From contig JADGPO010000146.1 of assembly GCA_017882405.1 (NCBI GenBank), positions 1-39,801 on the forward strand: a stretch of DNA of 39,801 nucleotides, written 5' to 3'. The translations under genes and the position numbers were made by a program. This DNA is from Solirubrobacteraceae bacterium (lineage in GTDB: Bacteria; Actinomycetota; Thermoleophilia; Solirubrobacterales; Solirubrobacteraceae). Under the pieces are notes generated by a model that was given only the letters and a program-made list of their open reading frames with translations, ran no database searches and was not told where the DNA came from. Positions 24,485 to 37,845 of this stretch are shown here, piece after piece (position 1 is the first letter of the stretch; each line of letters starts with the position of its first letter).

Positions 24485-25270
24485 TCAGCGGCGCAGAAGT
24501 CGCTCTTGCAGCGCACGCAGCTCGGGCGCGGGTGTGGCGCCGAGCTCGTCGCGCAGACGCGCGCGGAGCGCCTCATAGACGAGCAGGGCCTCGGCCGCGT
24601 TTCCGCGCGCGACCAGGATCTCCATCAGGAGCGCGTGCCCGCGTTCGCGGAACGGCTCGGCGGCGACGAGCTCGCGCGCGACGCGCTCGCCAGGTGCGAG
24701 CTCGGTGCCGCCCACGCCGAGCGCGACCGCCGCGTAGCACTCCAGCGCCGAGCAGCGGATCTCCTCCAGTCGCCGGCGATGCTCCTGCGCCCAGGGGAGG
24801 TCCTCGCCAGGCAGAAAGCCTCGGCGGGCCGTAAAGAGCGCGATCAGTGACGCGCCCCAGCCGCGCGCCCATTCGTGCTGTGTCACGGCCGACTCGGCGC
24901 GATGAATCGCCTCCTCGGCGGCCTCCAGATCGATCCAGGTTTCGGGCGGCAGTTTGAGGCGGACCTGAGCACCGCCTGAGAGCACGTCGCTGCCGAGCAC
25001 GCCTCGCAGACGCGAGAGCAACGCGCTCAGCGACGCGTCGGCACCCGCTGGCGCGCGCCACGGCCAGAGCGCTTCGATCAACTCCTCCCGCCGGGCCGGA
25101 AGCGCCCGGTTCACGACCAGGTATGTGAACAGCACCCGAGCCTGGCCGCCCGGTAGCTTCGCGGTCAGCTCACGCCCACCGAGCTCCACGGCCAGCCGGC
25201 CGCATAACTGAATCCGGGTCGGTGCCTTGTCGGGCAACTTTGCTGCAAGGAGAATCGCAGAAGTTTGCAA
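24485..25270 (-). CDS. BTAD-domain transcriptional regulator (SARP/AfsR-like)
   Basis: Regulator of 261 residues with the short SARP layout. An N-terminal OmpR-like winged-helix domain (about 18-110: QLCGRLAVELGGREL, GGQARVLFTYLVVNR, ALWPWRAP, LSALLSRLRGVLG) precedes a bacterial transcriptional activation domain (about 115-260) of TPR-like helices (EEIRCSALECYAAVALG, ERGHALLMEILVARGNAAEALLVYEALRARLRDELG). The start codon appears to be TTG 25270, with none better upstream. No ATPase or WD40 extension follows, but a WD40 fragment of the kind found on large BTAD proteins lies 29 nt beyond its stop on the other strand. Target genes are unknown; the divergent DUF1059-like gene starts 42 nt away. 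Confidence 0.85.
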   Translation of the reverse strand: MQTSAILLAAKLPDKAPTRIQLCGRLAVELGGRELTAKLPGGQARVLFTYLVVNRALPARREELIEALWPWRAPAGADASLSALLSRLRGVLGSDVLSGGAQVRLKLPPETWIDLEAAEEAIHRAESAVTQHEWARGWGASLIALFTARRGFLPGEDLPWAQEHRRRLEEIRCSALECYAAVALGVGGTELAPGERVARELVAAEPFRERGHALLMEILVARGNAAEALLVYEALRARLRDELGATPAPELRALQERLLRR

Positions 25271-25311
25271 ACCGCCGGCCGTAAGTTGGGCCGCACGAAC
25301 AAGGAGTCGTC

Positions 25312-25470
25312 ATGGCAAAGGTCATCCGGTGTCAGTGCGGGTTCCTCGCCCGCGGCGAGACCGTAGAACAAGCCGCTGCTGCGATCGACGTGCACATGCG
25401 CTCAGACCATCCCGAGCTGGTTGGAAAGGTGACCCGCGAAGATCTGATCGCCATGGCCGAAGAGTCGTAA
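25312..25470 (+). CDS. Small DUF1059-like protein (52 aa)
   Basis: A 52-residue protein starting MAKVIRCQCGFLARGETVEQ and ending DLIAMAEES. The Cys-x-Cys-Gly pair near the start and the VHMRSDHPEL segment later resemble DUF1059, a family of small proteins with a possible zinc or iron site made of two Cys and two His. A good Shine-Dalgarno (AAGGAG) precedes the ATG. It is divergent from the BTAD gene and lies 47 nt upstream of the rhodanese gene, probably in the same transcript. The function of the family is unknown. Confidence 0.75.
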   Translation: MAKVIRCQCGFLARGETVEQAAAAIDVHMRSDHPELVGKVTREDLIAMAEES

Positions 25471-25517
25471 CAACAGGCCACCGCCGCCGGCGGCTGGCCT
25501 CCCCAAAGGAGCAGAGC

Positions 25518-26399
25518 ATGCCGCCGACGCGGTCAAACCCCCAGCACCCCGAAGGTCCGCTCGTAACCAGCCAGTGGCTGGAGGCCAACCTCGAAGACCC
25601 GGGGGTGCGGATACTCGACGTCCGGGGCCGTCACCCAAGCTCTTCGCTTCCGCACGCCAAGCGCGCGGAGTACGCGGCCGGGCACATCCCGGGAGCCGCG
25701 TTCGTGGATTGGGAGCACGACTTCGTTGACACCGGGGACCCCGTGCCGGTCCAGGTCGCGCCCCCGGAGCGGTTCGCGCAGCGCGCCGGTGAGCTCGGCG
25801 TCGGCGACGGAGATCTGGTGGTCACCTACGACGACTATTACGGGATCTTCGCCGCTCGGGTCGCCTGGGCGTTCCGGCTCTACGGCGCGGAGGCGCGGGT
25901 GCTCGACGGCGGCTGGACCACGTGGCGAGAAGAGGGCCGTCCGGTCGCCGACGAGCCCGCAGAAGCGGTGCCCGCGCGGTTCGGCGCGAGGATCCGGCCC
26001 CGGCTGAGACGTACGCTGACCGAGGTCGAACAGGCCTGTCGCGACGGCGCGACGCTCGTCGACGCCCGCCCGCGGCACCTATTCCTCGGCCAGGAGCAAG
26101 TGGCCAATACCGGCCACATCCCGGGCGCGCGCTGCCTCCCGTACCAGGAACTGGTTGACGGCGCGACCGGGCTGTGGGCCGCGCCGGCGGCGGTCGCGCG
26201 GCTCGTCCGTGACGCCGGAATCGACCCCGACCGCCCGCCCCGCGAACTGATCGCGACGTGCGGAAGCGGCGTGTCCGCCACCGTCGCGCTGATGGCGCTC
26301 GAGCGGATCGGGGTCCACTGCGACGGCGTCTACGACGGATCGTTCAACGAATGGAGCACGGACCGGTCGCGGCCGGTTGCCTACGGCCGCACGGAATGA
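25518..26399 (+). CDS. Thiosulfate sulfurtransferase (two-domain rhodanese)
   Basis: Sulfurtransferase of 293 residues with two rhodanese domains. The N-terminal one (about 15-140) has ILDVRG, AAGHIPGAAFVDWE and the loop TYDDYYGIFAAR, where the catalytic Cys is replaced by Asp, so it is inactive as usual. The C-terminal one (about 165-285) has LVDARPR, NTGHIPGARCLPY and the active loop ATCGSGVSATV with the catalytic Cys. It moves sulfane sulfur from thiosulfate or a similar donor to an acceptor. The ATG at 25518 follows AAAGGAG by about six bases. It sits next to Mo/W cofactor genes, where it could feed sulfur to a MoaD-like carrier; that link is inference. Confidence 0.93.
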   Translation: MPPTRSNPQHPEGPLVTSQWLEANLEDPGVRILDVRGRHPSSSLPHAKRAEYAAGHIPGAAFVDWEHDFVDTGDPVPVQVAPPERFAQRAGELGVGDGDLVVTYDDYYGIFAARVAWAFRLYGAEARVLDGGWTTWREEGRPVADEPAEAVPARFGARIRPRLRRTLTEVEQACRDGATLVDARPRHLFLGQEQVANTGHIPGARCLPYQELVDGATGLWAAPAAVARLVRDAGIDPDRPPRELIATCGSGVSATVALMALERIGVHCDGVYDGSFNEWSTDRSRPVAYGRTE

Positions 26400-26780: not shown

Positions 26781-28706
26781 TCAGCGGATGCGCCGGCCCA
26801 TCTCGGTCGTGTCATATCCGCCGAGTTGCTCGACGGCAGCACGAAAGTCAGGCGACCGCAGAAGCTGCCACAGCGGCTCAAGCAGCGGGCTTTCCACCGA
26901 GGCGGGGTCGAGCACCAGGTCGTACGGCTCTGACGTCACCGGCACGAAATCCAACTCGAACGCGCGGGCGGCGGCCCGGATCCCCATGCCGCAGTCGGCT
27001 CGGCCCGCGGTAATTGCCGCGGCCACCGCGAGGTGGGTGGGTTCCTCGCGCGTGTATCCACTGATCGTCGCGGGGTCGATCTCCTCCCGGGCCAACTCGA
27101 AGTCGAGGAGTACGCGGGTGCCGGCGCCGCGCTGACGATTGACGTAGCGCAGCCCCGGGCGCGCGAGATCGGGAACACCGCGTAGGTCCAGCGGATTGCC
27201 TGGCGCGACCAGTAGACCCTGCTCCCGATGGACGAGGCGAATCACGGCGGTCCGCCGGCCGGGCAGCAAGCGGTCGAGATACGGCAGCGTGTACTCACCG
27301 GAGCCCGGGTCCAGCAGGTGCGAGCCCGCGAGATGGCAGAGGCCGTCGCGGACGGCGATCAGGCCGCCCATCGATCCGACGTTGCTCGAGGCGAGCGTCA
27401 ACTCGGGATGGTCGGCGCGCAGGGATGAGGCCGCGAGATCGAGGATCAGATCATGTGACCCGATTGCGACGATCGTATGGTCGATCTGGCTCAAGTCTCG
27501 TAGCAACGTGACCTGTACATCCTCGCCGGCGTGATGACCCTCGACGTCGGCGGGCACGACGAGCAGTCCGTCAGCGCGTACCAGCGAGGTGAGCACACCC
27601 GCTCCGCGGGGCATCGGCGAGGCGACCAGCGATCCGCCCACGCGTCCGAGCCTGACGCGCACCCAGTCATCCATTCCGATCGTGGAGGAGAGCTTGCGGG
27701 CCAGACGCGCCTCGGTCACCGGGCGCGGTGTGGTCGGCGCGCCTTCGAGCTCGGCGAGCAGTGGTGCGGCGAAGATGTCGAACGTCAGCGAGGCGGACAC
27801 CGGGTAGCCGGGTGCCCCGAGGACCGGTGTGGCGTCGATGGCGCCGAGGACGACCGGATGGCCAGGTCGCACCGCGACTCCGTGCACGGCGAGCGTGCCG
27901 AGTTCGCTGACGAGCATCGCCGTGTGATCGTCGCGGCCGGCGCTGGAGCCGGCGATCACGATCAGCAGGTCGCAGCGACCCACGGCGTCGCGGATCGCGC
28001 TGGTCAGTCGCTCGGGATCGTCGGGCTCAATCGGGAACACGAGAACGTGATAGCCGAGCTCGCGAGCTTGCCCAGCGAGCATCAGCGAGTTGGTATCCAG
28101 CAGTTCGCCGGCATCGAGCTCTGAGCCGATCGGCCGCATCTCGTCGCCGGTGGGCAGGATCCCCACCACCGGGGCCCGGCGCACGCAGACATCGGTGGCG
28201 CCGGCCGCAGCGGCAGCGGCAATGTCGACGGCACGCAGCCGGTGGCCGGCGGGCAGCAACAGCTCGGTGGCGCTGATGTCCTCTCCGACCGAGCGCACGT
28301 GCTGGTAGGGCGCGACCGCGGCCCGCAACTCGGCCCGGCCATCGTCGTGGTGAACGTCTTCGCGCATCACCACGGCGTCGAATCCGTCGGGCATCGGGTC
28401 ACCCGTGTCGATGACCACGAATGCTTCGGCGTCCAGCTGTAGCGGGATGCTCTCGCTCGCCCCCAGCGTCTCCGCGGCGCGGACCGCGACGCCGTCCATC
28501 GCGGCGGAGTCAAACGGCGGGGAGGACCGCACCGCCCAGATCGGTTCCGCGGTGACACGGCCAAGCCCGTCGGCAAGTGCCACGACCATCGCCGGCACGC
28601 GTGACGCGCACCCCGCCGCGCCGCGGCAACTGCTCCACGCCTCGCGCGCGTCGGCGAGTGGGAGGTCTTGCAGAAACGGGTGGGTGGGGGCCGTGTCCCT
28701 AGGCAT
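26781..28706 (-). CDS. MoeA-type molybdotransferase fused to a PBP-like domain
   Basis: Fusion of 641 residues. Residues about 1-410 form a MoeA domain, which inserts molybdate or tungstate into molybdopterin: FDSAAMDGVAVRA, the MoCF-biosynthesis motif VGILPTGDEM, AGSSAGRDDHT, and GHPVVLGAI with GAPGYPVSA. Residues about 420-641 are a periplasmic-binding-protein-like domain of the type often fused to MoeA or ModE relatives (VAIGSHDLILDLAASSLR, GSMGGLIAVRDGLCHLAGSH, RYVNRQRGAGTRVLLDFEL, GRADCGMGIRAAA). No signal peptide is present, so that domain is probably a cytoplasmic ligand sensor. It overlaps the upstream MoeA gene by eight bases and is the last gene of the formate/aldehyde oxidoreductase operon. 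Confidence 0.9.
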   Translation of the reverse strand: MPRDTAPTHPFLQDLPLADAREAWSSCRGAAGCASRVPAMVVALADGLGRVTAEPIWAVRSSPPFDSAAMDGVAVRAAETLGASESIPLQLDAEAFVVIDTGDPMPDGFDAVVMREDVHHDDGRAELRAAVAPYQHVRSVGEDISATELLLPAGHRLRAVDIAAAAAAGATDVCVRRAPVVGILPTGDEMRPIGSELDAGELLDTNSLMLAGQARELGYHVLVFPIEPDDPERLTSAIRDAVGRCDLLIVIAGSSAGRDDHTAMLVSELGTLAVHGVAVRPGHPVVLGAIDATPVLGAPGYPVSASLTFDIFAAPLLAELEGAPTTPRPVTEARLARKLSSTIGMDDWVRVRLGRVGGSLVASPMPRGAGVLTSLVRADGLLVVPADVEGHHAGEDVQVTLLRDLSQIDHTIVAIGSHDLILDLAASSLRADHPELTLASSNVGSMGGLIAVRDGLCHLAGSHLLDPGSGEYTLPYLDRLLPGRRTAVIRLVHREQGLLVAPGNPLDLRGVPDLARPGLRYVNRQRGAGTRVLLDFELAREEIDPATISGYTREEPTHLAVAAAITAGRADCGMGIRAAARAFELDFVPVTSEPYDLVLDPASVESPLLEPLWQLLRSPDFRAAVEQLGGYDTTEMGRRIR

Positions 28707-29931
28707 ACGGGAACACGTCGACGTCCTCGCCGGCGGGTAGGCCGGTCGCGGGTTCGGGCACGATCACGTATCCGTCGGCACCGGTCAGGACCGACAGGAG
28801 CGCCGACGGGCCGAACACGGGCTCGGCCTCATCACCGGACAGTCGAACCTGGACCACGTCAAGACGCCCTGCCGCGGACGGGAGGTTGCGCGCCAGACGC
28901 GCGCGCACGGTTCCGAGGCGCGGCTCGACGGTCCAGCCGCCGACACGCCGCACCACGGGCATACCGATTAGCCGGAAGACGACCAGTGCCGATCGGGGGT
29001 TGCCCGGCAGCCCGATGATCGGGATCCCGCCGGCAAAGGCCAGCAGGGTCGGCTTGCCCGGCTTGATCGCGAGGCCGTGGCACCAGATCTCCGAGCGCGA
29101 AAGCGACGAGACGGCCGCGCCCGTCTCGTCGCGAGCTCCAACCGAGGAGCCGGCGCAGATCACTACGACATCACTGTCGCGCACGGCCATCTCGAGCACT
29201 CGTTCCAGTGCCTCGCGGTCGTCGGGGACGATCCCCGACGGGTACGGGTCGCCGCCGGCCTCTCGAGCGAGCGCGCCGATCGAGACGCTCAGGGCGTCGC
29301 GTACCTGCCCGGGTGCCAGCTCCGTCGTGTCCGGTGAGCGGATCTCGTCGCCGGTGGCGATGATCGCCACTCGCGGCGCCGCGTGGACATCCACCTCGGT
29401 GACGCCGGCGGCGGCGAGTATCGCCACGTCCTGCGCGCGCAGCGGGCGCCCGGCCGGCGCCAGCCGCGCGCCCGGGCCGGCATCCTCGTCCGCGCGGACG
29501 ATCCCGTCGCCGGGCGCGACAGGCCGAACAACCTCAATCGTGCCGGGCATCGCCTCCTGAGTGTGCTCAACCATCACGACCGCGTCGGCGCCCGGCGGGA
29601 GCATCGCGCCGGTCGCGACCGCGACCGCTCTGTCTGCGGTGACGCTGACGTCGGCGGTGGCTCCCGTCCGCACGGCACCGCTGAGCTGCAGATACGCGGG
29701 GATCGCCTCTGAGGCGCCAAACGTGTCAGAGGCGCGAACGGCGTACCCGTCAACGGTCGAGCGGTCAAACCCCGGCAACGGCGCGCGGGCGAGGATCGCG
29801 GCGGCGGGCACTCGACCCGCAGCCGTCTCCAGGGGGGCGCGGTCGATCGCGCTGCGGTGCTCGGGACGGTATTCGCTCAGTGCCTCCGCGACCCGCCGTG
29901 CCGTGAAGAACTCCCTCCCGGTCGTGCGCAT
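28699..29931 (-). CDS. moeA: Molybdopterin molybdotransferase MoeA
   Basis: MoeA (gephyrin-like) of 410 residues, which inserts molybdate (or tungstate) into adenylylated molybdopterin. Domain order is normal: an N-terminal segment with FDRSTVDGYAVRASD, the insert domain (AVATGAMLPPGADAVVMVEH), the MoCF-binding domain with AIIATGDEIRSPDT, ICAGSSVGARDETG and KPTLLAFAGGIPIIGLPGNP, then a C-terminal barrel domain. It begins six bases after the FdhB stop and overlaps the MoeA-PBP fusion gene by eight bases. Two MoeA-type proteins side by side may serve different metals or target enzymes; in some tungsten-using organisms paralogues divide Mo and W, but the sequence alone does not show which. Confidence 0.92.
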   Translation of the reverse strand: MRTTGREFFTARRVAEALSEYRPEHRSAIDRAPLETAAGRVPAAAILARAPLPGFDRSTVDGYAVRASDTFGASEAIPAYLQLSGAVRTGATADVSVTADRAVAVATGAMLPPGADAVVMVEHTQEAMPGTIEVVRPVAPGDGIVRADEDAGPGARLAPAGRPLRAQDVAILAAAGVTEVDVHAAPRVAIIATGDEIRSPDTTELAPGQVRDALSVSIGALAREAGGDPYPSGIVPDDREALERVLEMAVRDSDVVVICAGSSVGARDETGAAVSSLSRSEIWCHGLAIKPGKPTLLAFAGGIPIIGLPGNPRSALVVFRLIGMPVVRRVGGWTVEPRLGTVRARLARNLPSAAGRLDVVQVRLSGDEAEPVFGPSALLSVLTGADGYVIVPEPATGLPAGEDVDVFPYA

Positions 29932-29937
29932 CGGGGT

Positions 29938-31671
29938 TCAGCTGGAAGCTGATGTGCGCTGCATGCGGAGCACGCTCATGACCGGCCCGAGCGCGACCTG
30001 CCCGAGGCCGCAGATCGACGTCAGGCGCATCGTCTCCTCCAGCTGATCGATGCGCGCTTCGACGTCGTCGGCACCGCCGCCTTGCAGGAGCAGGTCGCTG
30101 AGCATGATGTGCGCTTTGTGAGAGCCGACCCGGCACGGGACGCACTTACCGCAGGACTCGTTGCGAAAGAAGCGCAGGACGTTGGTGGCCGCGGCGAGCA
30201 GGTTGGTGCCCTCGCCGATCACGACGACCGCTCCGGAGCCGAGCATCGAGCCGGCGTCGGCCAACGGCTTGAAGTCCAGTGGCACGTCGAGCTGGTCGGG
30301 TCCGACGAAGTTCGAGGATGCGCCCCCGGGCTGGAATGCCTGCAGCTCGGCGCCGTCGGCGAGTCCGCCGGCGAGCTCGATGAGCCCGCGGGCGGTCGTG
30401 CCCATCGGGACGCAATACACGTCGGGGCGGGCGATGTGTCCGGAGATGGCAAAGAACTTCAATCCGACGCCTCCGTTGACGCCCTGGTCGCGCCACCACT
30501 GGGCGCCGCGTCGCATGATGATCGGCACGGCGGCGAACGTCTCAACCGAGTTCATCAGCGTCGGCTTGCCCCACAGCCCGTAGACGGCCGGAAATGGCGG
30601 CTTGTTACGCGGTTCGCCGCGGTGACCCTCCATGCATTCCAGCAGGGCGGACTCCTCGCCGAGGATGTAGCCCCCGGGCGAGGTGAAGATGTCGATGTCC
30701 AGGTTCCGACCGGATCCGAGCACATCGGGCCCTATCACTCCGTGCGCCCGGGCATTGGCGAGCTCGGCGCGGACGGCGTTCGCTTCGGGCCCGTACTCGT
30801 GGCGGATGAAGACCCAGCCCTGCTCGGCACCGGTGGCCAGCATGGCGACCAGCATGCCTTCGATCACGAGGTGCGGCTGCTCAGCGAGGATCTGGCGGTC
30901 CTTGAACGTGCCGGGCTCGGACTCGTCGGCGTTGCAGATCACGTACTTCGGCTCGTTCTCCTGGCTGGCGACCATCTCCCACTTGCCGCCGGTCGGAAAC
31001 CCGGCCCCGCCCATTCCCCGCAGGCCTGACTCCTTGAGCTCCCCGATCGCGTGCTCCAGGAAGCCGCCCATCCCGCGCAACCCGGACTCGTCCAGACGCT
31101 CGATCGCCTCCTCACCGCCGAACTCGCCGGCGAGGACGCTGCGCACGACGGCGTAGCGATCCACATCCGCTCCTTCGGGATACGGGTCGTTCGGCCAGTG
31201 ACGAGGGGGCCGTGCGGGGGGCGTCGCGAGTTGCGCGCCGGAGCGCGCGCTGTCGACGAGCTCCTCGACCTCGGCTGCTGCGACCGGGCGCTCGTTGACG
31301 GTCAATGCCGGGGCGATGTCGCACCGCCCCAGACACGACACCGTGCGCAACTCGATCTCGACGTCGTCCCCGTAACGAGCACGGATCTCAGCGATCTGCT
31401 CGTCGGCGCCCTGCAGCCAGCAGGACAGGTCCCGGCACACGGCGACCTCGATCCGCGGGGGCGCGTCGACCCGGAAGTGCGGGTAGAACGAGATCAGCCC
31501 CTCGATCTCGTACAACGGCCGGCGCGTGTCGCGTGACAGTGTCAGCAACCGGTCGCGTGGCAGCCAGCCGCACTCAGCTTGGATCGCGTTCAGCGCCGGG
31601 ATCAGGCTGGGACCGGGGAACTTGCCCGCGCGCGCCTCGCGGCCGGGGACGCGTCCGTTGGTGATCGACAT
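29938..31671 (-). CDS. Formate dehydrogenase beta subunit, NuoE-NuoF fusion
   Basis: Diaphorase-type subunit of 577 residues that passes electrons between the FdhA clusters and NAD. The NuoE part (1-145) has a [2Fe-2S] site: Cys79, Cys84, Cys113 and Cys117 (CRDLSC, CLGRC). The NuoF part has the FMN/NADH region GMGGAGFPTGGKWEM, NADESEPGTFKDR, GAGAY-like GGYILGEESAL, and a C-terminal [4Fe-4S] site ESCGKCVPCRVGS with Cys in SICGLGQ. The ATG at 31671 overlaps the FdhA stop by one base. An unusual duplication is present: AIERLDESGLRGMGG (189-203) and AIGELKESGLRGMGG (208-222) repeat with a 19-residue period, just before the FMN loop. Confidence 0.92.
   Translation of the reverse strand: MSITNGRVPGREARAGKFPGPSLIPALNAIQAECGWLPRDRLLTLSRDTRRPLYEIEGLISFYPHFRVDAPPRIEVAVCRDLSCWLQGADEQIAEIRARYGDDVEIELRTVSCLGRCDIAPALTVNERPVAAAEVEELVDSARSGAQLATPPARPPRHWPNDPYPEGADVDRYAVVRSVLAGEFGGEEAIERLDESGLRGMGGFLEHAIGELKESGLRGMGGAGFPTGGKWEMVASQENEPKYVICNADESEPGTFKDRQILAEQPHLVIEGMLVAMLATGAEQGWVFIRHEYGPEANAVRAELANARAHGVIGPDVLGSGRNLDIDIFTSPGGYILGEESALLECMEGHRGEPRNKPPFPAVYGLWGKPTLMNSVETFAAVPIIMRRGAQWWRDQGVNGGVGLKFFAISGHIARPDVYCVPMGTTARGLIELAGGLADGAELQAFQPGGASSNFVGPDQLDVPLDFKPLADAGSMLGSGAVVVIGEGTNLLAAATNVLRFFRNESCGKCVPCRVGSHKAHIMLSDLLLQGGGADDVEARIDQLEETMRLTSICGLGQVALGPVMSVLRMQRTSASS
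31006..31107 (-). repeat. Tandem duplication inside the FdhB gene
   Basis: Two 45-nt units (31063-31107 and 31006-31050) encode near-identical 15-residue segments, each ending ESGLRGMGG, with a 57-nt period. Twelve of the 15 residues match. The DNA copies differ at several codon positions, so the duplication is not fresh. Only the second copy runs into the FMN-binding GAGFPTG. Confidence 0.75.
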
Positions 31672-34535
31672 CAGTCGCCGGCCGCGACCGTCGCCGGAGC
31701 GCCCGCCGCCTCGACGCGGACCGCGCAGAACTTGAACTCCGGAATCTTCCCGAACGGGTCGATCTCGTCGATCGTGAGCAGGTTCGCCGCTGCCTCGCGG
31801 AAGTGAAACGGGATGAAGCAACTGCCGACGGTCTCGCGATGCGACACCCTGGCCTCCAGCTCGATCGCCCCCCGCCGCGAGCTGACGCGGGCGAAGTCCC
31901 CGTCGGCGATTCCCAACCGCCCAGCGTCCCGCGGGTTCAGGAACACCGTCGCCGTGGGGGAGATCGTGTCCAGCGCGTAGGAGCGCCGGGTCATCGAGCC
32001 CGTATGCCAGTGCTCGAGCAGGCGACCGGTGTTCAGCACGAACGGAAATTCCTCGTTGGGCAGCTCGCGGGCCGGCAGCCACTCCGCCGGCACGAGGTGG
32101 GCGAGGCCGTCGTCGGTGTTGAACGAATCCTGGAACAGGACGACCGTCCCGTCGCTCTCGTCCGGATCGGAGTTCGGGTAGAGCTTGCCGGTCGGACCCA
32201 GGTTCTCGTAGCGCAGGTTCGTGTAGTTGGGCATCAGCGCCACCTGCTCGTCGAAGATCTCGCTGGGGGACTGGTAGTCCATCGGCAGCCCGACCCGGTT
32301 GGCGATGTCCTGGATGATCTCCCAGTCGACCCGGGCCTCGCCGGGCGGCTCGAGCACCTTGCGGCCGCGCTGCACGCGACGGTCGGTGTTCGTGTAGCTT
32401 CCCTCCTTCTCCAAATACGAGGATGCCGGCAGGACCACGTCGGCGAACTCGGCCGTCTCGGTCAGGAAGATGTCCTGCACGGCCAGGAAGTCAAGTGCCG
32501 CCAGCGCCTTGCGAACCTTGTTGATGTTGGGGTCAGACAGGAACGGGTTCTCGCCCATCATGTACATGCCGCGCACGCTGCCGGTCAGCGCCGCGCCGAT
32601 GATCTCGGTGACGGTCAGTCCGCGCTGGGGATCCAGCGAGCGACCCCAGGCGGCCTCGAATCGCTCCTGCACCGCCGGTCGGTCGACGGGCTGATAATCG
32701 GGATAGAACATCGGAATCAGGCCTGCATCGGATGCCCCCTGCACGTTGTTCTGGCCGCGCAGCGGATGAAGTCCGCTGCCGGGGCGCCCGACGTTGCCGG
32801 TGATGGAGCACAAGGCGATCAGACACCGCGCGTTGTCGGTTCCGGTGGTGTGCTGGGAGATGCCCATGCCCCAGTACACGACCGCGGCCCCGGCCTCGCC
32901 CCACAACCGCGCGACCTCGCGGATCATCGCCGGTGCGATCCCGCAGATCTGCCCGGCCCGCTCGGCGGGATACTGCTTGACCATCTTCGCCAGCTCGCCG
33001 TAGTTGCTGGTCCGCTCGGCGATGAACTCACGGTCGACCAGGCCGGCGGCGATGATCTCGAACATCACCCCGTTGTAGAAGGCGACGTCGGTGCCCGGCT
33101 TGATCTGGCAGTAGATGTCGGCGTGATCGGCCACCCGCTCGCGCCGCGGATCGACCACAATCAGCTTCGTTCCGCGCCGCCGGGCCTGCTTGAAGAACGA
33201 CGAGGCGACCGGGTGATTGGCGGTGGTATTGGTGCCGGCCAGAATCGCGACGTCGGCGTTGATGACGTCACCGTAGGTGGTCGACACCGCCGCGGACCCG
33301 ACGCCTTCGAACAGCGCGGCGACGCTCGAGGCGTGGCAAAGGCGCGTGCAGTGATCGATGTTGTTGGTGCCAAACCCGGCGCGGATCAGCTTCTGGAACA
33401 GATAGGCCTCTTCGTTGGAGCATTTCGCCGATCCAAAGCCCGCGATCGCGCCCCCGCCATGCTCGTCGCGAATCGCCACCAGCCGTCCCGCGACCAGGTC
33501 CAGAGCCTCCTCCCAGCTCGCCTCCCGGAAGTGGGGCATCACCTCCGCGTAATCGACCAGCCCTCCCGGCTTGCGCCGGCCGCGCCCTTCGCCCTTGACG
33601 TCGCCCGACAGCGCGCCCTTGGGATAGGAGTCGTCGCGGCGGATCAGCGGCATGGTGAGGCGCTGGGGGGATCGTGCGTAGTCCCACCCGTAACGGCCCT
33701 TGACGCACAGCCGCCCCTTGGATCCGGGCTGGTCGCGTCCCTCGGCGAACGCGATGGCGTGGCGGTCTTCGTCCACGTGGTAGGTGAGGGCACAGCCGAC
33801 ACCGCAGTAGGGGCAGACCGAGTCGACCTGGCGCAGCTCGGAGCGAGGGCGGATCGGGACATCGTGCAGCGGCTTGTTGGTCAGCGCCCCGGTCGGGCAG
33901 GCTGCGACGCATTCTCCGCAGGTGACGCACGACGAGTCGCCCATCGGATCGTTGAGGTCGAACGCGATGCGGGTTGTGTAGCCCTTGCCGCTGCGGCCGA
34001 TCACGTCGTTGCCCTGGATGTCGTCGCAGGCGCGCACGCAGCGGTCACACAGGATGCATGCGTCGTGATTGACGGAGATCACCGGGTTCGAGCTGTCGAG
34101 CCCGCGTCCTTCGCCCTGAGGCACGCCGTCGTCCTGGCTGAGGCCGAATTGGCGGACGAGGACCAGCAGCTCGTTGTCGGCGGTGGTCGTTTCCTTGGGA
34201 TCGAGCTCGGGATCGGGCTGGTCGGCCAGCAGCAGCTCGGTCAGCGTCGAACGCTGGCGCTCGACCCGCTCGTTGGTGGTGGTGACCTCCATGCCCTCTT
34301 CGCAGGGCCGGACGCACGCGGCGGCATAGACGCGGGCGCCGATGTCCACGACGCACATGCGGCATACCCCGACGGGGTCATAGCGCGGATCGTGGCAGAG
34401 CACCGGGATCGCGATCCCGAGCTGCGCGGCGGCGTCGAGGATCGTCGTGCCGTCGGCGACGGTGACCTCTTGCCCGTCGATCCGCAGCGTGACGTTCTTG
34501 GTTACCGCAGTGGGGGTAGCTGATGCGGTCGCCAC
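31671..34535 (-). CDS. fdhA: Formate dehydrogenase alpha subunit (Mo/W-bis-MGD)
   Basis: Catalytic subunit of 954 residues that oxidises formate to CO2 (or the reverse). The N-terminus holds a NuoG-like [2Fe-2S] domain (Cys47, 58, 61, 74), then two [4Fe-4S] ferredoxin-type sites (Cys160, 163, 166, 170 and Cys203, 206, 209, 213). The molybdopterin part begins with a further [4Fe-4S] site (Cys241, 244, 248, 277). The active site is RLCHASSVAAL, with Cys400 as metal ligand next to His401, so this is a cysteine, not selenocysteine, enzyme. A C-terminal dinucleotide-binding domain ends the chain. GTG 34535 is preceded by GAGGAG. It starts seven bases after the AOR stop and overlaps the FdhB gene. 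The layout is that of cytosolic NAD-linked FDHs. Confidence 0.94.
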   Translation of the reverse strand: MATASATPTAVTKNVTLRIDGQEVTVADGTTILDAAAQLGIAIPVLCHDPRYDPVGVCRMCVVDIGARVYAAACVRPCEEGMEVTTTNERVERQRSTLTELLLADQPDPELDPKETTTADNELLVLVRQFGLSQDDGVPQGEGRGLDSSNPVISVNHDACILCDRCVRACDDIQGNDVIGRSGKGYTTRIAFDLNDPMGDSSCVTCGECVAACPTGALTNKPLHDVPIRPRSELRQVDSVCPYCGVGCALTYHVDEDRHAIAFAEGRDQPGSKGRLCVKGRYGWDYARSPQRLTMPLIRRDDSYPKGALSGDVKGEGRGRRKPGGLVDYAEVMPHFREASWEEALDLVAGRLVAIRDEHGGGAIAGFGSAKCSNEEAYLFQKLIRAGFGTNNIDHCTRLCHASSVAALFEGVGSAAVSTTYGDVINADVAILAGTNTTANHPVASSFFKQARRRGTKLIVVDPRRERVADHADIYCQIKPGTDVAFYNGVMFEIIAAGLVDREFIAERTSNYGELAKMVKQYPAERAGQICGIAPAMIREVARLWGEAGAAVVYWGMGISQHTTGTDNARCLIALCSITGNVGRPGSGLHPLRGQNNVQGASDAGLIPMFYPDYQPVDRPAVQERFEAAWGRSLDPQRGLTVTEIIGAALTGSVRGMYMMGENPFLSDPNINKVRKALAALDFLAVQDIFLTETAEFADVVLPASSYLEKEGSYTNTDRRVQRGRKVLEPPGEARVDWEIIQDIANRVGLPMDYQSPSEIFDEQVALMPNYTNLRYENLGPTGKLYPNSDPDESDGTVVLFQDSFNTDDGLAHLVPAEWLPARELPNEEFPFVLNTGRLLEHWHTGSMTRRSYALDTISPTATVFLNPRDAGRLGIADGDFARVSSRRGAIELEARVSHRETVGSCFIPFHFREAAANLLTIDEIDPFGKIPEFKFCAVRVEAAGAPATVAAGD

Positions 34536-34542
34536 GGGCTCC

Positions 34543-36387
34543 TCAACTCTCGCTCGTTACACCGATTGCTCGATTCGCCGGGCTCAGCCGGTCGAGATCC
34601 AGCTCGCGTAGCGTACCGCTGCGCGGCACTCCGGTCGGCTCCAGGCCGCGGCCGCGATAGTAGGCATCGATCATTCGTGTCAGACGCTCCGGGGTTAGCG
34701 TCGCGGTACGCCCGGAGTCCAGCTCCAAGGGCTGCGTGAGGAAGCGCTCGGGCAGCCAGTCCTCTGCGCGCGTCCACCCCTCGCGAAGGTTGAACAGGCG
34801 CTTGGCGAGCACGATCCGCCGAGCGGTCTGCTCCAGCTCCGCCGCGTCGACATCCCACCCCGTGACCTTCTCGAGCAGCGCGGCCCATTCCGAGAACGGG
34901 TCCTCGAACACGCCGCGCAGGAACTTGCAGAGAATCAGCGAGTCCATGATCGCCGCGCGGTCCTCGGTCTCGATCGCGCCGGCCACGGCCGGCGCGCCGC
35001 CATCCAACCGGTCGTGGCGGCCAGATAGGTCGAACTCGTAGGCGCCCGAACGGTTGTGATCAGCGCCGCGGGCGTTCACCGACAGACCCAGCGCCATCGC
35101 CTGCAACGTCCGCGGCTCATACCCGGGCAGCTCGAGCCCCTTCACGTGCGCCGCAAACGCCCCTGATCCCTGCCCGACCTTGCGTGACGCAAACCGCGAG
35201 CCTTCGGCCAGCAGATCGCCGAGGCCCTCGCGGGCGCCGATCTCCTCGATCGCGCGCAGCAACGCTTCGGCGTCGCCGAAGCGCAGCCATGGCGCGTCGA
35301 TCAGACCCGCCTCGGCGCTTTCCATCGCCCAGGCGATCGTTCCGCCAGTCGAGATCGTGTCGATCCCGAGCTCGTCGCAGCGCGAGCTGGCGGCGATGAC
35401 CGCATCCGCGTCGCCGACGCCGCATAGCGGGCCAAGCGCGAACACGTTCTCGTATTCCATCCGGGTCTTCTTGCCACCGGGGCCGCGGTAGAGGTGCTCG
35501 CACCCGATCGAGCACGACGCGCACGAACTGCGAGCCACTTGACGGAGCTCGGCGACGTCCTCGGCTCCCAGCGTCGACGCGCCCTCGAAGCTCGCTGCGG
35601 AAAAGTTGCGGGTCGGGAGCGTCGAGATCGCATTGAACGCCAGCAGATTGGCCATCGTGCCCAGCTCGCGGTACTTCGCGGTCGCTGGCCCAAATGACCG
35701 GCCGCGCAGCTCTCTCGCTGCCGCCAGGACCCCCGGTGGATCCGCGGAAGCAACCTTGCGGGACGGACGCACCATGACCGCCTTGCACAGCTTCGAACCC
35801 ATCACGGCGCCGAGGCCGCCGCGGCCGGCGTGACGTCCGTCGTGAGAGACCGTCGCGTAGCGGACGAGCCGCTCCCCCGCTTGACCGATCGCCGCGACAC
35901 GCCAGGCCGGCCCCATGCGATCACGCAGGCGCACCTCGGCCTCAGCAGCCGGTAGGCCCCAGAACTCATCCGCCGGAGCCAGCCACACCGAGCCGCCATC
36001 GATCATCAACACCGACGGCTGCGGACAACGGCCGCGCAGCACGACCGCGTCATGACCCGTGAGCTTGCCGGCGATCGCGAAATGGCTCGAGGCGAGAGCA
36101 TCAGTCAGCCGACCGGTCAGTGGCGACTTCGCCACGACCGCGAACTTCGCGCTCGTGGTCAGCGGCGTCCCCACCAAGGGCGAGAAGACGAAGATCAACG
36201 GCGCGGGCGGCGAGAGCGGATCGACCCCGGGCGGGCAGCACTCGTGCATCAGCCACGCCCCCAGGCCAGCGCCCCCGATGAACGATCGCAGCACCCACTC
36301 AGGCAGTGACTTGACCTCTGCCGTCCCGGTAGTGAGATCGACAATCAGGGCCTTGCCGAAATAGCCGCCCGGAAGCGCGCTCGCCAT
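34543..36387 (-). CDS. Aldehyde:ferredoxin oxidoreductase family protein (tungstoenzyme)
   Basis: AOR-family enzyme of 614 residues. Known members hold a tungsto-bispterin and one [4Fe-4S] cluster, and interconvert aldehydes and carboxylic acids. The N-terminal GGYFGKALIVDLTTG is the family's start, followed by the pterin-binding segments GGAGLGAWLMHE, TTSAKFAVVAKSPLTG and HDGRHAGRGGLGAVMGSK. The cluster ligands are CASCSIGC (about Cys289, 292, 296) and a distant Cys in DSLILCKFLRG (about 487), the classic spacing. ATG 36387 is used; a TTG lies one codon earlier. The stop is seven bases before fdhA. No separate ferredoxin-like partner gene is present, so FdhA/FdhB clusters may take its electrons; that is inference. 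Confidence 0.93.
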   Translation of the reverse strand: MASALPGGYFGKALIVDLTTGTAEVKSLPEWVLRSFIGGAGLGAWLMHECCPPGVDPLSPPAPLIFVFSPLVGTPLTTSAKFAVVAKSPLTGRLTDALASSHFAIAGKLTGHDAVVLRGRCPQPSVLMIDGGSVWLAPADEFWGLPAAEAEVRLRDRMGPAWRVAAIGQAGERLVRYATVSHDGRHAGRGGLGAVMGSKLCKAVMVRPSRKVASADPPGVLAAARELRGRSFGPATAKYRELGTMANLLAFNAISTLPTRNFSAASFEGASTLGAEDVAELRQVARSSCASCSIGCEHLYRGPGGKKTRMEYENVFALGPLCGVGDADAVIAASSRCDELGIDTISTGGTIAWAMESAEAGLIDAPWLRFGDAEALLRAIEEIGAREGLGDLLAEGSRFASRKVGQGSGAFAAHVKGLELPGYEPRTLQAMALGLSVNARGADHNRSGAYEFDLSGRHDRLDGGAPAVAGAIETEDRAAIMDSLILCKFLRGVFEDPFSEWAALLEKVTGWDVDAAELEQTARRIVLAKRLFNLREGWTRAEDWLPERFLTQPLELDSGRTATLTPERLTRMIDAYYRGRGLEPTGVPRSGTLRELDLDRLSPANRAIGVTSES

Positions 36388-36436
36388 CAAAGCAGCCTAC
36401 CGCTGGCTTCGCAGGATGAGGCCCGGCCGCTCCTCG

Positions 36437-37282
36437 TTAGCCGCCTGCGTCGGCAGCCAGGAACGCAAGTGAGTCCCCCGCTGCCAGCGGCAGATGCGGA
36501 TCGCGACTGATTTGATCGCCGTTGAGTGCCGCGACGACGTGCTCGTCCAGGGTCAATCCAACCGCCAGGGCGGCGGCCCCGAGCGTGCACGCCCGGATTG
36601 TCTCCCGCCGCGGACCGGACTTCGGTGCCAGGGTTCCGAATCGCTCGACCACCACCTCCGGCGCGGGAAGCGCCCGGGCCTGGCGGTAGTCAGCCTGCTC
36701 GTTGAGGTTTTGGACTGACCTCAGCGCCGGGTCGAGCCGCGCGAGCACCGAATCGTCAAGGAGCGCGGCTTCGCCCAAGCGCAGCACCCGACAGCGATCG
36801 AAGATGAACGCCGGCTTGAGACGATCGGCGGCGATCAGCTCCTCGACGATCCCGAGCAGGCTCGTCCGGTAGGCGGCGGCGAGCGGCTGCCGGTGGCCGC
36901 CGATCTCCGGCAACACGACATCCTCATCGTCGCCGAGCGCGGCGACGACGCGCGCCACGAACGCGGGGTGAAGCAGCGGCACGTCGGTCGACGACAGGTA
37001 CGCGACCGACGCGCGATCGCCGATCGCGCGCAGACCACCGGCCAGTCCCTGCAGCGGACCGCGACCCTCGGTGGCGTCGTCGACGATCTCGACGGCAACC
37101 GCCAGGTCCGGCAGCTGCTGTCCGGGAGCGCGCACAACGATTACGGGCCCGTCCACCACGCGGGCGACGATCCCGGTGACGCGCCGCAGCAGCGTCGAGC
37201 CGTGCCACTCCAGTGCGGCCTTCGGCGATCCCATCCGAGATGACCGACCGCCCGCCAGAACGATTCCCGCCGCGTCGCGCAT
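36437..37282 (-). CDS. MobA-like nucleotidyltransferase fused to a MoaD-like domain
   Basis: Fusion of 281 residues. The first 190 or so are a MobA-type enzyme that attaches GMP to molybdopterin: GIVLAGGRSSRMGSPKAAL, DATEGRGPLQGLAGGLRA, YLSSTDVPLLHP and LPEIGGHRQPLAAAY. The last 75 residues (from EVVVERFGTLAP) form a MoaD/ThiS-like beta-grasp domain: LGAAALAVGLTLDEHVVAAL, NGDQISRDP, and an end at AFLAADAGG with the terminal Gly-Gly used for thiocarboxylate formation. ATG 37282 begins directly at the MobA fold; earlier in-frame codons look non-coding. It is the first gene of the operon, 49 nt before AOR, and diverges from the CBS gene. Confidence 0.88.
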   Translation of the reverse strand: MRDAAGIVLAGGRSSRMGSPKAALEWHGSTLLRRVTGIVARVVDGPVIVVRAPGQQLPDLAVAVEIVDDATEGRGPLQGLAGGLRAIGDRASVAYLSSTDVPLLHPAFVARVVAALGDDEDVVLPEIGGHRQPLAAAYRTSLLGIVEELIAADRLKPAFIFDRCRVLRLGEAALLDDSVLARLDPALRSVQNLNEQADYRQARALPAPEVVVERFGTLAPKSGPRRETIRACTLGAAALAVGLTLDEHVVAALNGDQISRDPHLPLAAGDSLAFLAADAGG

Positions 37283-37398
37283 CGGTCCGATGGTAGGCCC
37301 GCGGCGGAGTGGGTGACATCCGTCTGGCACCGCCCCATCCGTTCACCTGCTGCATATCCACCAGGGGCAGCTATCGGACCGGCATAGAATTCCGCACT

Positions 37399-37845
37399 GT
37401 GAGCTCGAGCGAGTGGAGCGTCGGCAAGCTTTCGCGCGACGAGGCGTCGGACCTTTCGGTCCGGGACGTGATGTACACGTCCCCGAAGACGCTCCCAGCC
37501 GACACAACCGTCGGCGAGCTGCGCCGCCAGTTCGAGCAACCTAAGCTCCGCACCGCCCTCCTAGCCGATGGGAGCACCTTCGTGGGCGCGATCCAGCGCG
37601 CTGACGTCCCGGCGTCTGCTGCGTCAGAGGAGCAGGCGATCGGCTATGCGCAGCGCCGGCCCGAGGCGATCGGGCCCGAACGACCCGCCGCAGAGGCGCT
37701 CGCGCGCTTGGACGGCGAGAACGATGACTATCGTCTCGTCGTGCTCGCCGACGATGGTCAGACTCTGATCGGGCTGGTCTGCATGAACGCGGCACGGACG
37801 CACTTCTGCGTCGATAAACGTGGGACCCAAGCGGTCGTGCCGTAG
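37399..37845 (+). CDS. CBS domain protein
   Basis: Protein of 148 residues with a pair of CBS-like modules, which usually bind adenosyl ligands and regulate other proteins. The first reads VRDVMYTSPKTLPADTTVGE, LRTALLADGSTFVGAIQRAD; the second PERPAAEALARLDGENDDYR and LVVLADDGQTLIGLVCMN. GTG 37399 is chosen; a longer in-frame version from 37309 adds 30 residues without family features. The tail ends HFCVDKRGTQAVVP. It is divergent from the MobA-MoaD gene across 116 nt, so a shared control region is possible. Confidence 0.82.
   Translation: MSSSEWSVGKLSRDEASDLSVRDVMYTSPKTLPADTTVGELRRQFEQPKLRTALLADGSTFVGAIQRADVPASAASEEQAIGYAQRRPEAIGPERPAAEALARLDGENDDYRLVVLADDGQTLIGLVCMNAARTHFCVDKRGTQAVVP

What the first reader, a model, noticed from the sequence alone, without database searches (positions are those of the whole stretch)
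26781..37282. Six-gene operon joining AOR, NAD-linked formate dehydrogenase and its own Mo/W cofactor machinery
Six minus-strand genes are spaced by overlaps or short gaps (49 nt or less): MobA-MoaD, AOR, FdhA, FdhB (NuoE-NuoF), MoeA and MoeA-PBP. AOR usually needs a ferredoxin-type partner, and none is present, while FdhA/FdhB bring iron-sulfur sites and an FMN/NAD module. A single complex or shared electron pool that links aldehyde/acid and formate chemistry to NAD(H) is a reasonable proposal and would be unusual for an actinobacterium.
Basis: partly seen in the sequence, partly recalled or inferred. Interest (0 to 1): 0.75.

Follow-up and report, generated by a model that had tools for sequence, protein, structure and literature searches.

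The report
Paired tungsten aldehyde and formate enzymes
This soil-bacterium operon makes two enzymes that probably use tungsten, one acting on aldehydes and one on formate, together with cofactor-building proteins, and the same enzyme pair sits side by side in distant bacterial groups, so the two probably work together.

Summary
The six-gene operon is real and at the stated coordinates. AOR is a one-cluster large subunit with its catalytic residues intact; no small 4Fe-4S subunit was found in the window. FdhA is closest to the tungsten formate dehydrogenase of Methylorubrum extorquens; FdhB has the same fused build. MobA-MoaD, MoeA and MoeA-PBP surround them; some relatives add TupABC tungstate transport nearby.
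The pairing is wider than supposed: FdhA follows AOR in 46 of 51 actinobacterial loci with room. In 396 genomes of this phylum the same 6 carry both enzymes, always adjacent. Of 199 Planctomycetota genomes 21 have this AOR; 20 of these have this FDH type, 15 adjacent, with a 4-nt ATGA overlap in 7 of 10 read closely. Some Chloroflexota put other FDHs beside the same AOR clade.
Observation confirmed; functional coupling likely. A single complex is possible but unproven; coupling through formate, or through shared tungsten supply, also fits. 'Unusual for an actinobacterium' does not hold. New variant of a known kind.

The parts
36437..37282 (-). MobA-MoaD (WorX-like) fusion: guanylyltransferase plus sulfur-carrier domain ending in Gly-Gly
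34543..36387 (-). AOR, WOR-family large subunit (expected W-bis-pterin and one 4Fe-4S)
   Evidence: AFOR_N/AFOR_C; best solved relative 1aor; Cys289/292/296/487, Tyr423 and His444 conserved in 56 of 56 relatives, Glu313 in 53 of 56
31671..34535 (-). FdhA, formate dehydrogenase alpha with NuoG-like N-terminus, Cys (not Sec) type
   Evidence: TIGR01591 781 bits, cut-off 666; best solved relative W-FDH1 of M. extorquens, 1004.8 bits against 594.4 for the next different enzyme
29938..31671 (-). FdhB, NuoE-NuoF fusion with expected FMN/NAD(H) site
   Evidence: Pfam; aligns with W-FDH1 beta 7e5z_B over residues 23-569 at 317 bits, rank 5; the top row is a hydrogenase subunit at 350 bits; start set
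28699..29931 (-). MoeA, metal insertase
   Evidence: Pfam MoeA_N, MoCF_biosynth, MoeA_C
26781..28706 (-). MoeA-PBP, probable tungstate-dedicated metal insertase
   Evidence: PRK14498 684 bits, cut-off 534; PBP_like 239 bits; link of MoeA-PBP to TupA in PMC11733289 (passages)

Best explanation
A tungsten-dedicated operon that encodes a two-enzyme oxidation module and the proteins that load its cofactors. MobA-MoaD and the two MoeA proteins build W-pterin (kept as bis-pterin for AOR, guanylylated to bis-MGD for FdhA). AOR oxidises an aldehyde to its acid; FdhA oxidises formate to CO2 and passes electrons through its NuoG-like Fe-S chain and FdhB (Fe-S, FMN) to NAD+. The coupling I judge most likely is through formate: the AOR of this clade makes formate or works in the same C1 route (formaldehyde to formate to CO2 being the simplest form), which would explain why FDHs of different build are found beside it. 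Shown by sequence: gene order, domains, conserved ligands, conserved pairing. Inferred: tungsten as the metal, the substrate, the direction, and the way AOR disposes of its electrons (soluble ferredoxin, or FdhAB itself).
For: FdhA matches the M. extorquens W-FDH1 best by far and FdhB shares its fused build. In relatives TupA lies in 12, TupB in 10 and TupC in 11 of 63 loci (one TupC, in L048, only 42% and without TupA/B in view; names); FdhD in 5 of 63. AOR and FDH1 co-occur: 6 and 6, the same genomes of 396; 20 of 21 AOR genomes against 4 of 178 others in Planctomycetota, Fisher p 1.5e-22 ignoring kinship. Control: FdhA within 1.5 kb of AOR in 6 of 6 loci of this clade, in 0 of 24 other AOR loci returned by the same search. 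Different FDHs beside the same AOR clade: FDH1 (Actinomycetota, Planctomycetota), a separate NuoE/NuoF-linked FDH (L056, L062, L063, L188), FDH-N type (L190, L192; L008 and L023 genomes about 11 and 6 kb away). In 87 AOR loci, 64 have one bis-MGD-type enzyme in view, and each of the 64 is FDH-like at 300 bits or more; no other was found with FDH queries at E 1e-4.
Against: No substrate gene for formaldehyde or another C1 source lies in the operon, and none stood out among the recurrent flanking clusters (annotated only in part). The L005/L008/L023 lineage, near FDH-N in two genomes, carries Gln in place of the catalytic Glu313, so it may not be an active example. Many AORs of the wider clade stand with MoaD alone or with other genes (L053, L125, L189, L191, L193); 23 of 87 loci show no bis-MGD enzyme, some because the contig ends; only 4 of 11 Chloroflexota loci with wide flanks have an FDH near. 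All FDHs are Mo/W enzymes, so the pattern does not by itself exclude shared metal. No metal or activity was measured.
Confidence: 0.45

Rival explanations
1. Direct electron-transfer complex: AOR docks on the Fe-S N-terminus of FdhA and aldehyde electrons reach NAD+ through FdhB, making an NAD-linked AOR without the usual WorS wire.
For: The only Fe-S/flavin chain found with AOR in the operon is FdhAB. The AOR-FdhA gap is 7 nt in the window, and 7 of 10 Planctomycetota pairs read closely overlap by 4 nt (ATGA); in two more the AOR frame runs into FdhA. In 4 of those 10 loci (L174, L175, L176, L187) FdhB lies upstream of AOR and FdhA downstream, so AOR is between the FDH genes. Two separate NAD-linked FDH lineages lie beside this AOR clade (quick tree with long-branch warnings). 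Precedent: Class IV WOR complexes join WorL with an electron module; solved entry 9mqx, which by its chain names I take to be such a complex, matches AOR by chain D and FdhB by chain B.
Against: AOR kept without FDH1 in L044 (best FdhA in its draft genome 38%) and G754; pairs not adjacent in G015, G691, G804, G861; projected gaps of 0.4-7.9 kb between AOR and FdhA in 5 of 46 loci. Beside an FDH-N with a twin-arginine-like start (L190, read by eye) a cytoplasmic complex would not be expected. No fusion protein among the 120 best FdhA homologues listed of 7995.
Confidence: 0.3
2. Shared metal supply only: two tungsten enzymes are kept together because they use the same uptake and cofactor genes under one regulator; their reactions are unrelated.
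For: TupABC in some loci, a PBP_like regulator gene in 11 of 63 loci (GntR domain above cut-off in 3 of 4 scanned), MoeA-PBP and MobA-MoaD in the same neighbourhoods. M. extorquens groups moeA1-mobB-tupBCA (PMC13197769, passage).
Against: The partner is an FDH each time a bis-MGD-type enzyme was in view (64 of 64; FDH queries only); AOR and FdhA genes overlap in Planctomycetota; FDH1 stands without an annotated AOR or W gene within 7 kb in one Methylobacterium and one Azospirillum plasmid (plasmid gene tables are incomplete), so FDH1 can do without these neighbours.
Confidence: 0.2

Closest known systems
Methylorubrum extorquens W-FDH1 (7vw6, 7e5z) and its MoeA1-MobB-Tup pathway
   Same: FdhA closest in sequence; FdhB with the same NuoEF-fused build; W uptake and insertion genes associated (PMC13197769, abstract and passages)
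   Different: No AOR annotated beside FDH1 in the two alphaproteobacterial loci viewed (M. extorquens itself not viewed); here MoeA-PBP and a MobA-MoaD fusion are in the operon
Class I WOR: PfAOR, BmWOR
   Same: Single large subunit, no WorS, ThiS-like WorX often near (PMC13328260); ligands and catalytic residues kept
   Different: Those use ferredoxin and no FDH partner is described in the parts read; WorX-like domain here is fused to MobA; the position of the dimer-bridging Glu332 is Ala in 55 of 56 relatives
Class III WOR: Aromatoleum AorABC
   Same: Idea of an NAD-linked AOR
   Different: WorS and FAD-type WorN not found here; NAD module is NuoEF-type and belongs to an FDH
Class IV WOR: WorLS-ABC (Acetomicrobium, Eubacterium)
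   Same: WorL joined to a multi-subunit electron module; 9mqx matches AOR and FdhB by different chains
   Different: No WorS found here; the NuoG-like part is the N-terminus of a formate dehydrogenase

Membership tests
AOR/WOR large subunit | AFOR_N and AFOR_C domains; four Cys ligands; Glu313, Tyr427, His448 (Pf numbering) | tested here: met
AOR/WOR large subunit | bound tungsten bis-pterin | not testable with these tools
   metal analysis needed
WOR Class I | no WorS encoded | tested here: met
   within the 39.8-kb window only FdhA carries the 4Fe-4S motif searched; no whole genome held
WOR Class I | ferredoxin as acceptor | not testable with these tools
   assay needed
WOR Classes II-V | WorS small subunit | tested here: not met
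   window only, by motif
W-FDH1-type formate dehydrogenase | FdhA with NuoG-like N-terminus and Cys at the active site, fused NuoEF beta | tested here: met
   the Cys is read in the alignment, its catalytic role is recalled
W-FDH1-type formate dehydrogenase | tungsten in the active site, NAD-linked formate oxidation | not testable with these tools
   assay needed
MoeA-PBP (PRK14498) | above curated cut-off, C-terminal PBP_like domain | tested here: met
MoaD/ThiS sulfur carrier | ThiS domain and C-terminal Gly-Gly | tested here: inconclusive
   Gly-Gly met (51 of 51 relatives; window sequence); ThiS only E 0.013 in the window copy, matched in 14 of 16 members at a loose limit; the fold comparison did not cover this part

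The most novel reading that the evidence does not exclude
A sixth kind of tungsten oxidoreductase: AOR uses a complete formate dehydrogenase (FdhAB) as its electron-accepting module, so one assembly exchanges electrons among aldehyde/acid, formate/CO2 and NAD(H), perhaps even driving CO2 to formate with aldehyde electrons.
Probability: 0.25. Interest if true: 0.85.

Novelty: new variant of a known kind. Interest (0 to 1): 0.62.

Why it matters
Tungsten oxidoreductases are classed by partner subunits. The main text of the 2026 WOR classification has no word beginning 'actino' and holds 'formate dehydrogenase' once, which falls in the reference list as far as the two passages shown; the parts I read describe no FDH-linked class. 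A conserved AOR-FDH pair in Actinomycetota and Planctomycetota gives a testable partner, a possible C1 role, and a sign that tungsten is used in groups, many of them aerobic as far as I recall, where a 2018 survey expected AOR and TupABC less (PMC6147048, passages). It also points to further FDH1-type enzymes to test.

Tried and rejected
Rejected: chance adjacency. Rejected as far as searched: a 4Fe-4S ferredoxin or WorS hidden in the window (one motif, ORFs of 40 aa or more; 2Fe-2S ferredoxins were not sought). TupABC, FdhD and SelD in the window itself: none found by tblastn with relatives' proteins. Tried without result: an AOR-FdhA fusion protein (none among 120 listed of 7995); RNA families at gathering score and tRNAs in the window (none); papers on this pairing. 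Seven paper searches (listings capped) gave no title or abstract start that showed it; 24 (AOR + Pseudonocardia + FDH) returned 0. I saw parts or passages of ten papers (PMC13328260, PMC7176365, PMC11733289, PMC13197769, PMC1779556, PMC12096430, PMC6147048, PMC9424855, PMC12727526, PMC7325909), none whole, and no supplements, so I do not claim that the pairing is unpublished. PMC7325909 reports aor and fdh in anaerobic-type Actinobacteria, not this pairing in the passages seen.

Limits: one search sampled by six peptide patterns, so counts from it describe that sample. Trees are quick searches with SH-aLRT support only and carry long-branch warnings. Searches scored only the best few candidates per genome. 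The four Planctomycetota FdhA hits at 40-44% were dropped from the FDH1 count (24 kept of 28). Five of 56 AOR loci lacked 3 kb downstream and were not counted in 46 of 51. The seed genomes G001 and G015 are counted in their phyla. Own slip: L065 was labelled 'not next to AOR', but it is the same gene as L019's, whose AOR lies 2.2 kb upstream; label counts there are off by that row.

Full report
Observation. Searches confirm six co-directional genes at 26781-37282 with short gaps or overlaps; start codons of AOR and FdhB were corrected. No whole genome is held for the window; its AOR is 85% and FdhA 87% identical to a Solirubrobacterales MAG (L001), so a host of that group is likely.

The enzymes. 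AOR matches PfAOR (1aor) best among solved structures. Its four Cys ligands, Tyr and His are kept in 56 of 56 relatives and Glu313 in 53 of 56; the three others have Gln. FdhA matches the tungsten FDH1 of M. extorquens at 1004.8 bits, the next different enzyme scoring 594.4. FdhB is a NuoE-NuoF fusion that aligns with the FDH1 beta subunit over residues 23-569 at 317 bits; four rows, hydrogenase and complex I subunits, score higher. No other ORF of the window carries the 4Fe-4S motif searched.

The cofactor genes. MoeA-PBP passes its curated cut-off. PMC11733289 (passages) reports that MoeA-PBP co-occurs with the tungstate transporter TupA in 86% of cases and proposes a tungsten role. In relatives here TupA lies in 12, TupB in 10 and TupC in 11 of 63 loci, and FdhD in 5 of 63. 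A separate PBP_like gene is in 11 of 63 loci; it carries a GntR domain above cut-off in 3 of 4 scanned and below it in the fourth. The MobA domain is supported by fold; the MoaD part rests on ThiS matches in 14 of 16 members at a loose limit and a DAGG end in 51 of 51.

Conservation in Actinomycetota. Of 63 loci found, 56 have AOR at 66% identity or more. Of these 51 have 3 kb downstream, and 46 of 51 carry FdhA downstream on the same strand; L004, L005, L008, L023 and L044 do not. The genome of L004 holds FDH1-type genes elsewhere; that of L044 shows none above 38%. MobA-MoaD is upstream in 51 of 51 with 1.5 kb; MoeA is present in 43 of 46 and MoeA-PBP in 41 of 46 with 9.5 kb downstream. In 396 genomes drawn from the phylum, AOR of this clade (67% or more; next best 44%) is in 6, FDH1-type FdhA (76% or more; next best 51%) in the same 6, and the two are adjacent in all 6. 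One of the six is the seed genome. The 24 other AOR loci returned by that search have no FdhA within their flanks of up to 1.5 kb.

Beyond Actinomycetota. In 199 Planctomycetota genomes AOR is in 21, FDH1 type in 24, both in 20; AOR precedes FdhA directly in 15 of 20, is not adjacent in 4, and in 1 the two lie on different contigs so that it cannot be told. Seven of ten pairs read closely overlap by ATGA, and in four FdhB is upstream so that AOR sits between the FDH genes. FDH1 without AOR occurs in four genomes, AOR without FDH1 in one. In Dehalococcoidia (L056, L062, L063; also L188 in the phylum search) MobA, AOR, NuoE, NuoF and FdhA stand together, with a MoaD-like gene before AOR in L056, L062 and L063 and a cupin after AOR in L062 and apparently L056. 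Their FdhA lies outside the FDH1 clade, so this pairing looks independent, though the tree carries long-branch warnings. L190 and L192 have an FDH-N type upstream of AOR, and in the L008 and L023 genomes an FDH-N type lies about 11 and 6 kb away. Only 4 of 11 Chloroflexota loci of that search viewed with wide flanks had an FDH near (L062, L188, L190, L192); 6 of the 17 hits were not viewed so. Thermomicrobium roseum has AOR with MoaD and no FDH in the stretch read. Over 87 AOR loci together, 64 show a bis-MGD-type enzyme, one each, and each is FDH-like at 300 bits or more; 23 show none, some because the contig ends (FDH queries at E 1e-4, so remote relatives could be missed).

How it works. 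The metal genes make a tungsten operon likely. The pairing with FDHs of different build points to formate as the link; the ATGA overlap and the nested order point to a closer, perhaps physical, link; the transporter and insertase genes also allow a link by metal supply only. I rank these 0.45, 0.30 and 0.20. Exceptions (L044, G754, pairs that are not adjacent) rule out AOR as an obligate FDH subunit everywhere.

Known relatives. PMC13328260 (outline; parts 1 and 2 of its results; term search) sorts WORs into Classes I-V by partner subunits. By its rule this AOR would be Class I, but no FDH partner is described in the parts I read. The statements on BmWOR, AorABC and WorABC come from those parts. 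PMC1779556 (passages) already noted AOR-linked MoaD genes.

Noticed in passing
L005, L008, L023 (AOR): Catalytic Glu313 is Gln in all three AORs of this lineage (3 of 56), which lack FDH1 beside them; in L023 AOR is followed at once by SelD.
   Followed up: partly
L029:5385-6542, L033:8071-9018, L028:19900-20853: GntR plus PBP_like regulator beside or near TupA; its PBP domain is about 40% identical to that of MoeA-PBP, a possible tungstate sensor.
   Followed up: partly
window 25227-26399: Rhodanese protein (mercaptopyruvate sulfurtransferase-like, below the model's cut-off) convergent with the operon; might supply sulfur.
   Followed up: no
window 37309-37845: Divergent ORF with a CBS domain upstream of MobA-MoaD.
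   Followed up: no
L004, L019, L037, L044: Same ABC exporter beside AOR in four Pseudonocardia, between AOR and FdhA or MoeA; an Nramp-type gene also in L004.
   Followed up: partly
NZ_LT559118.1: An 11.85-Mb Nonomuraea gerenzanensis record is listed as a plasmid; by size it looks like the chromosome.
   Followed up: no
L055: AOR, FdhA, MoeA and MoeA-PBP hits are split into frame-shifted pieces, probably sequencing errors.
   Followed up: no
L094-L097; L106, L109-L113: Other AORs carry Tyr at the His448 position or His at the Tyr427 position.
   Followed up: no
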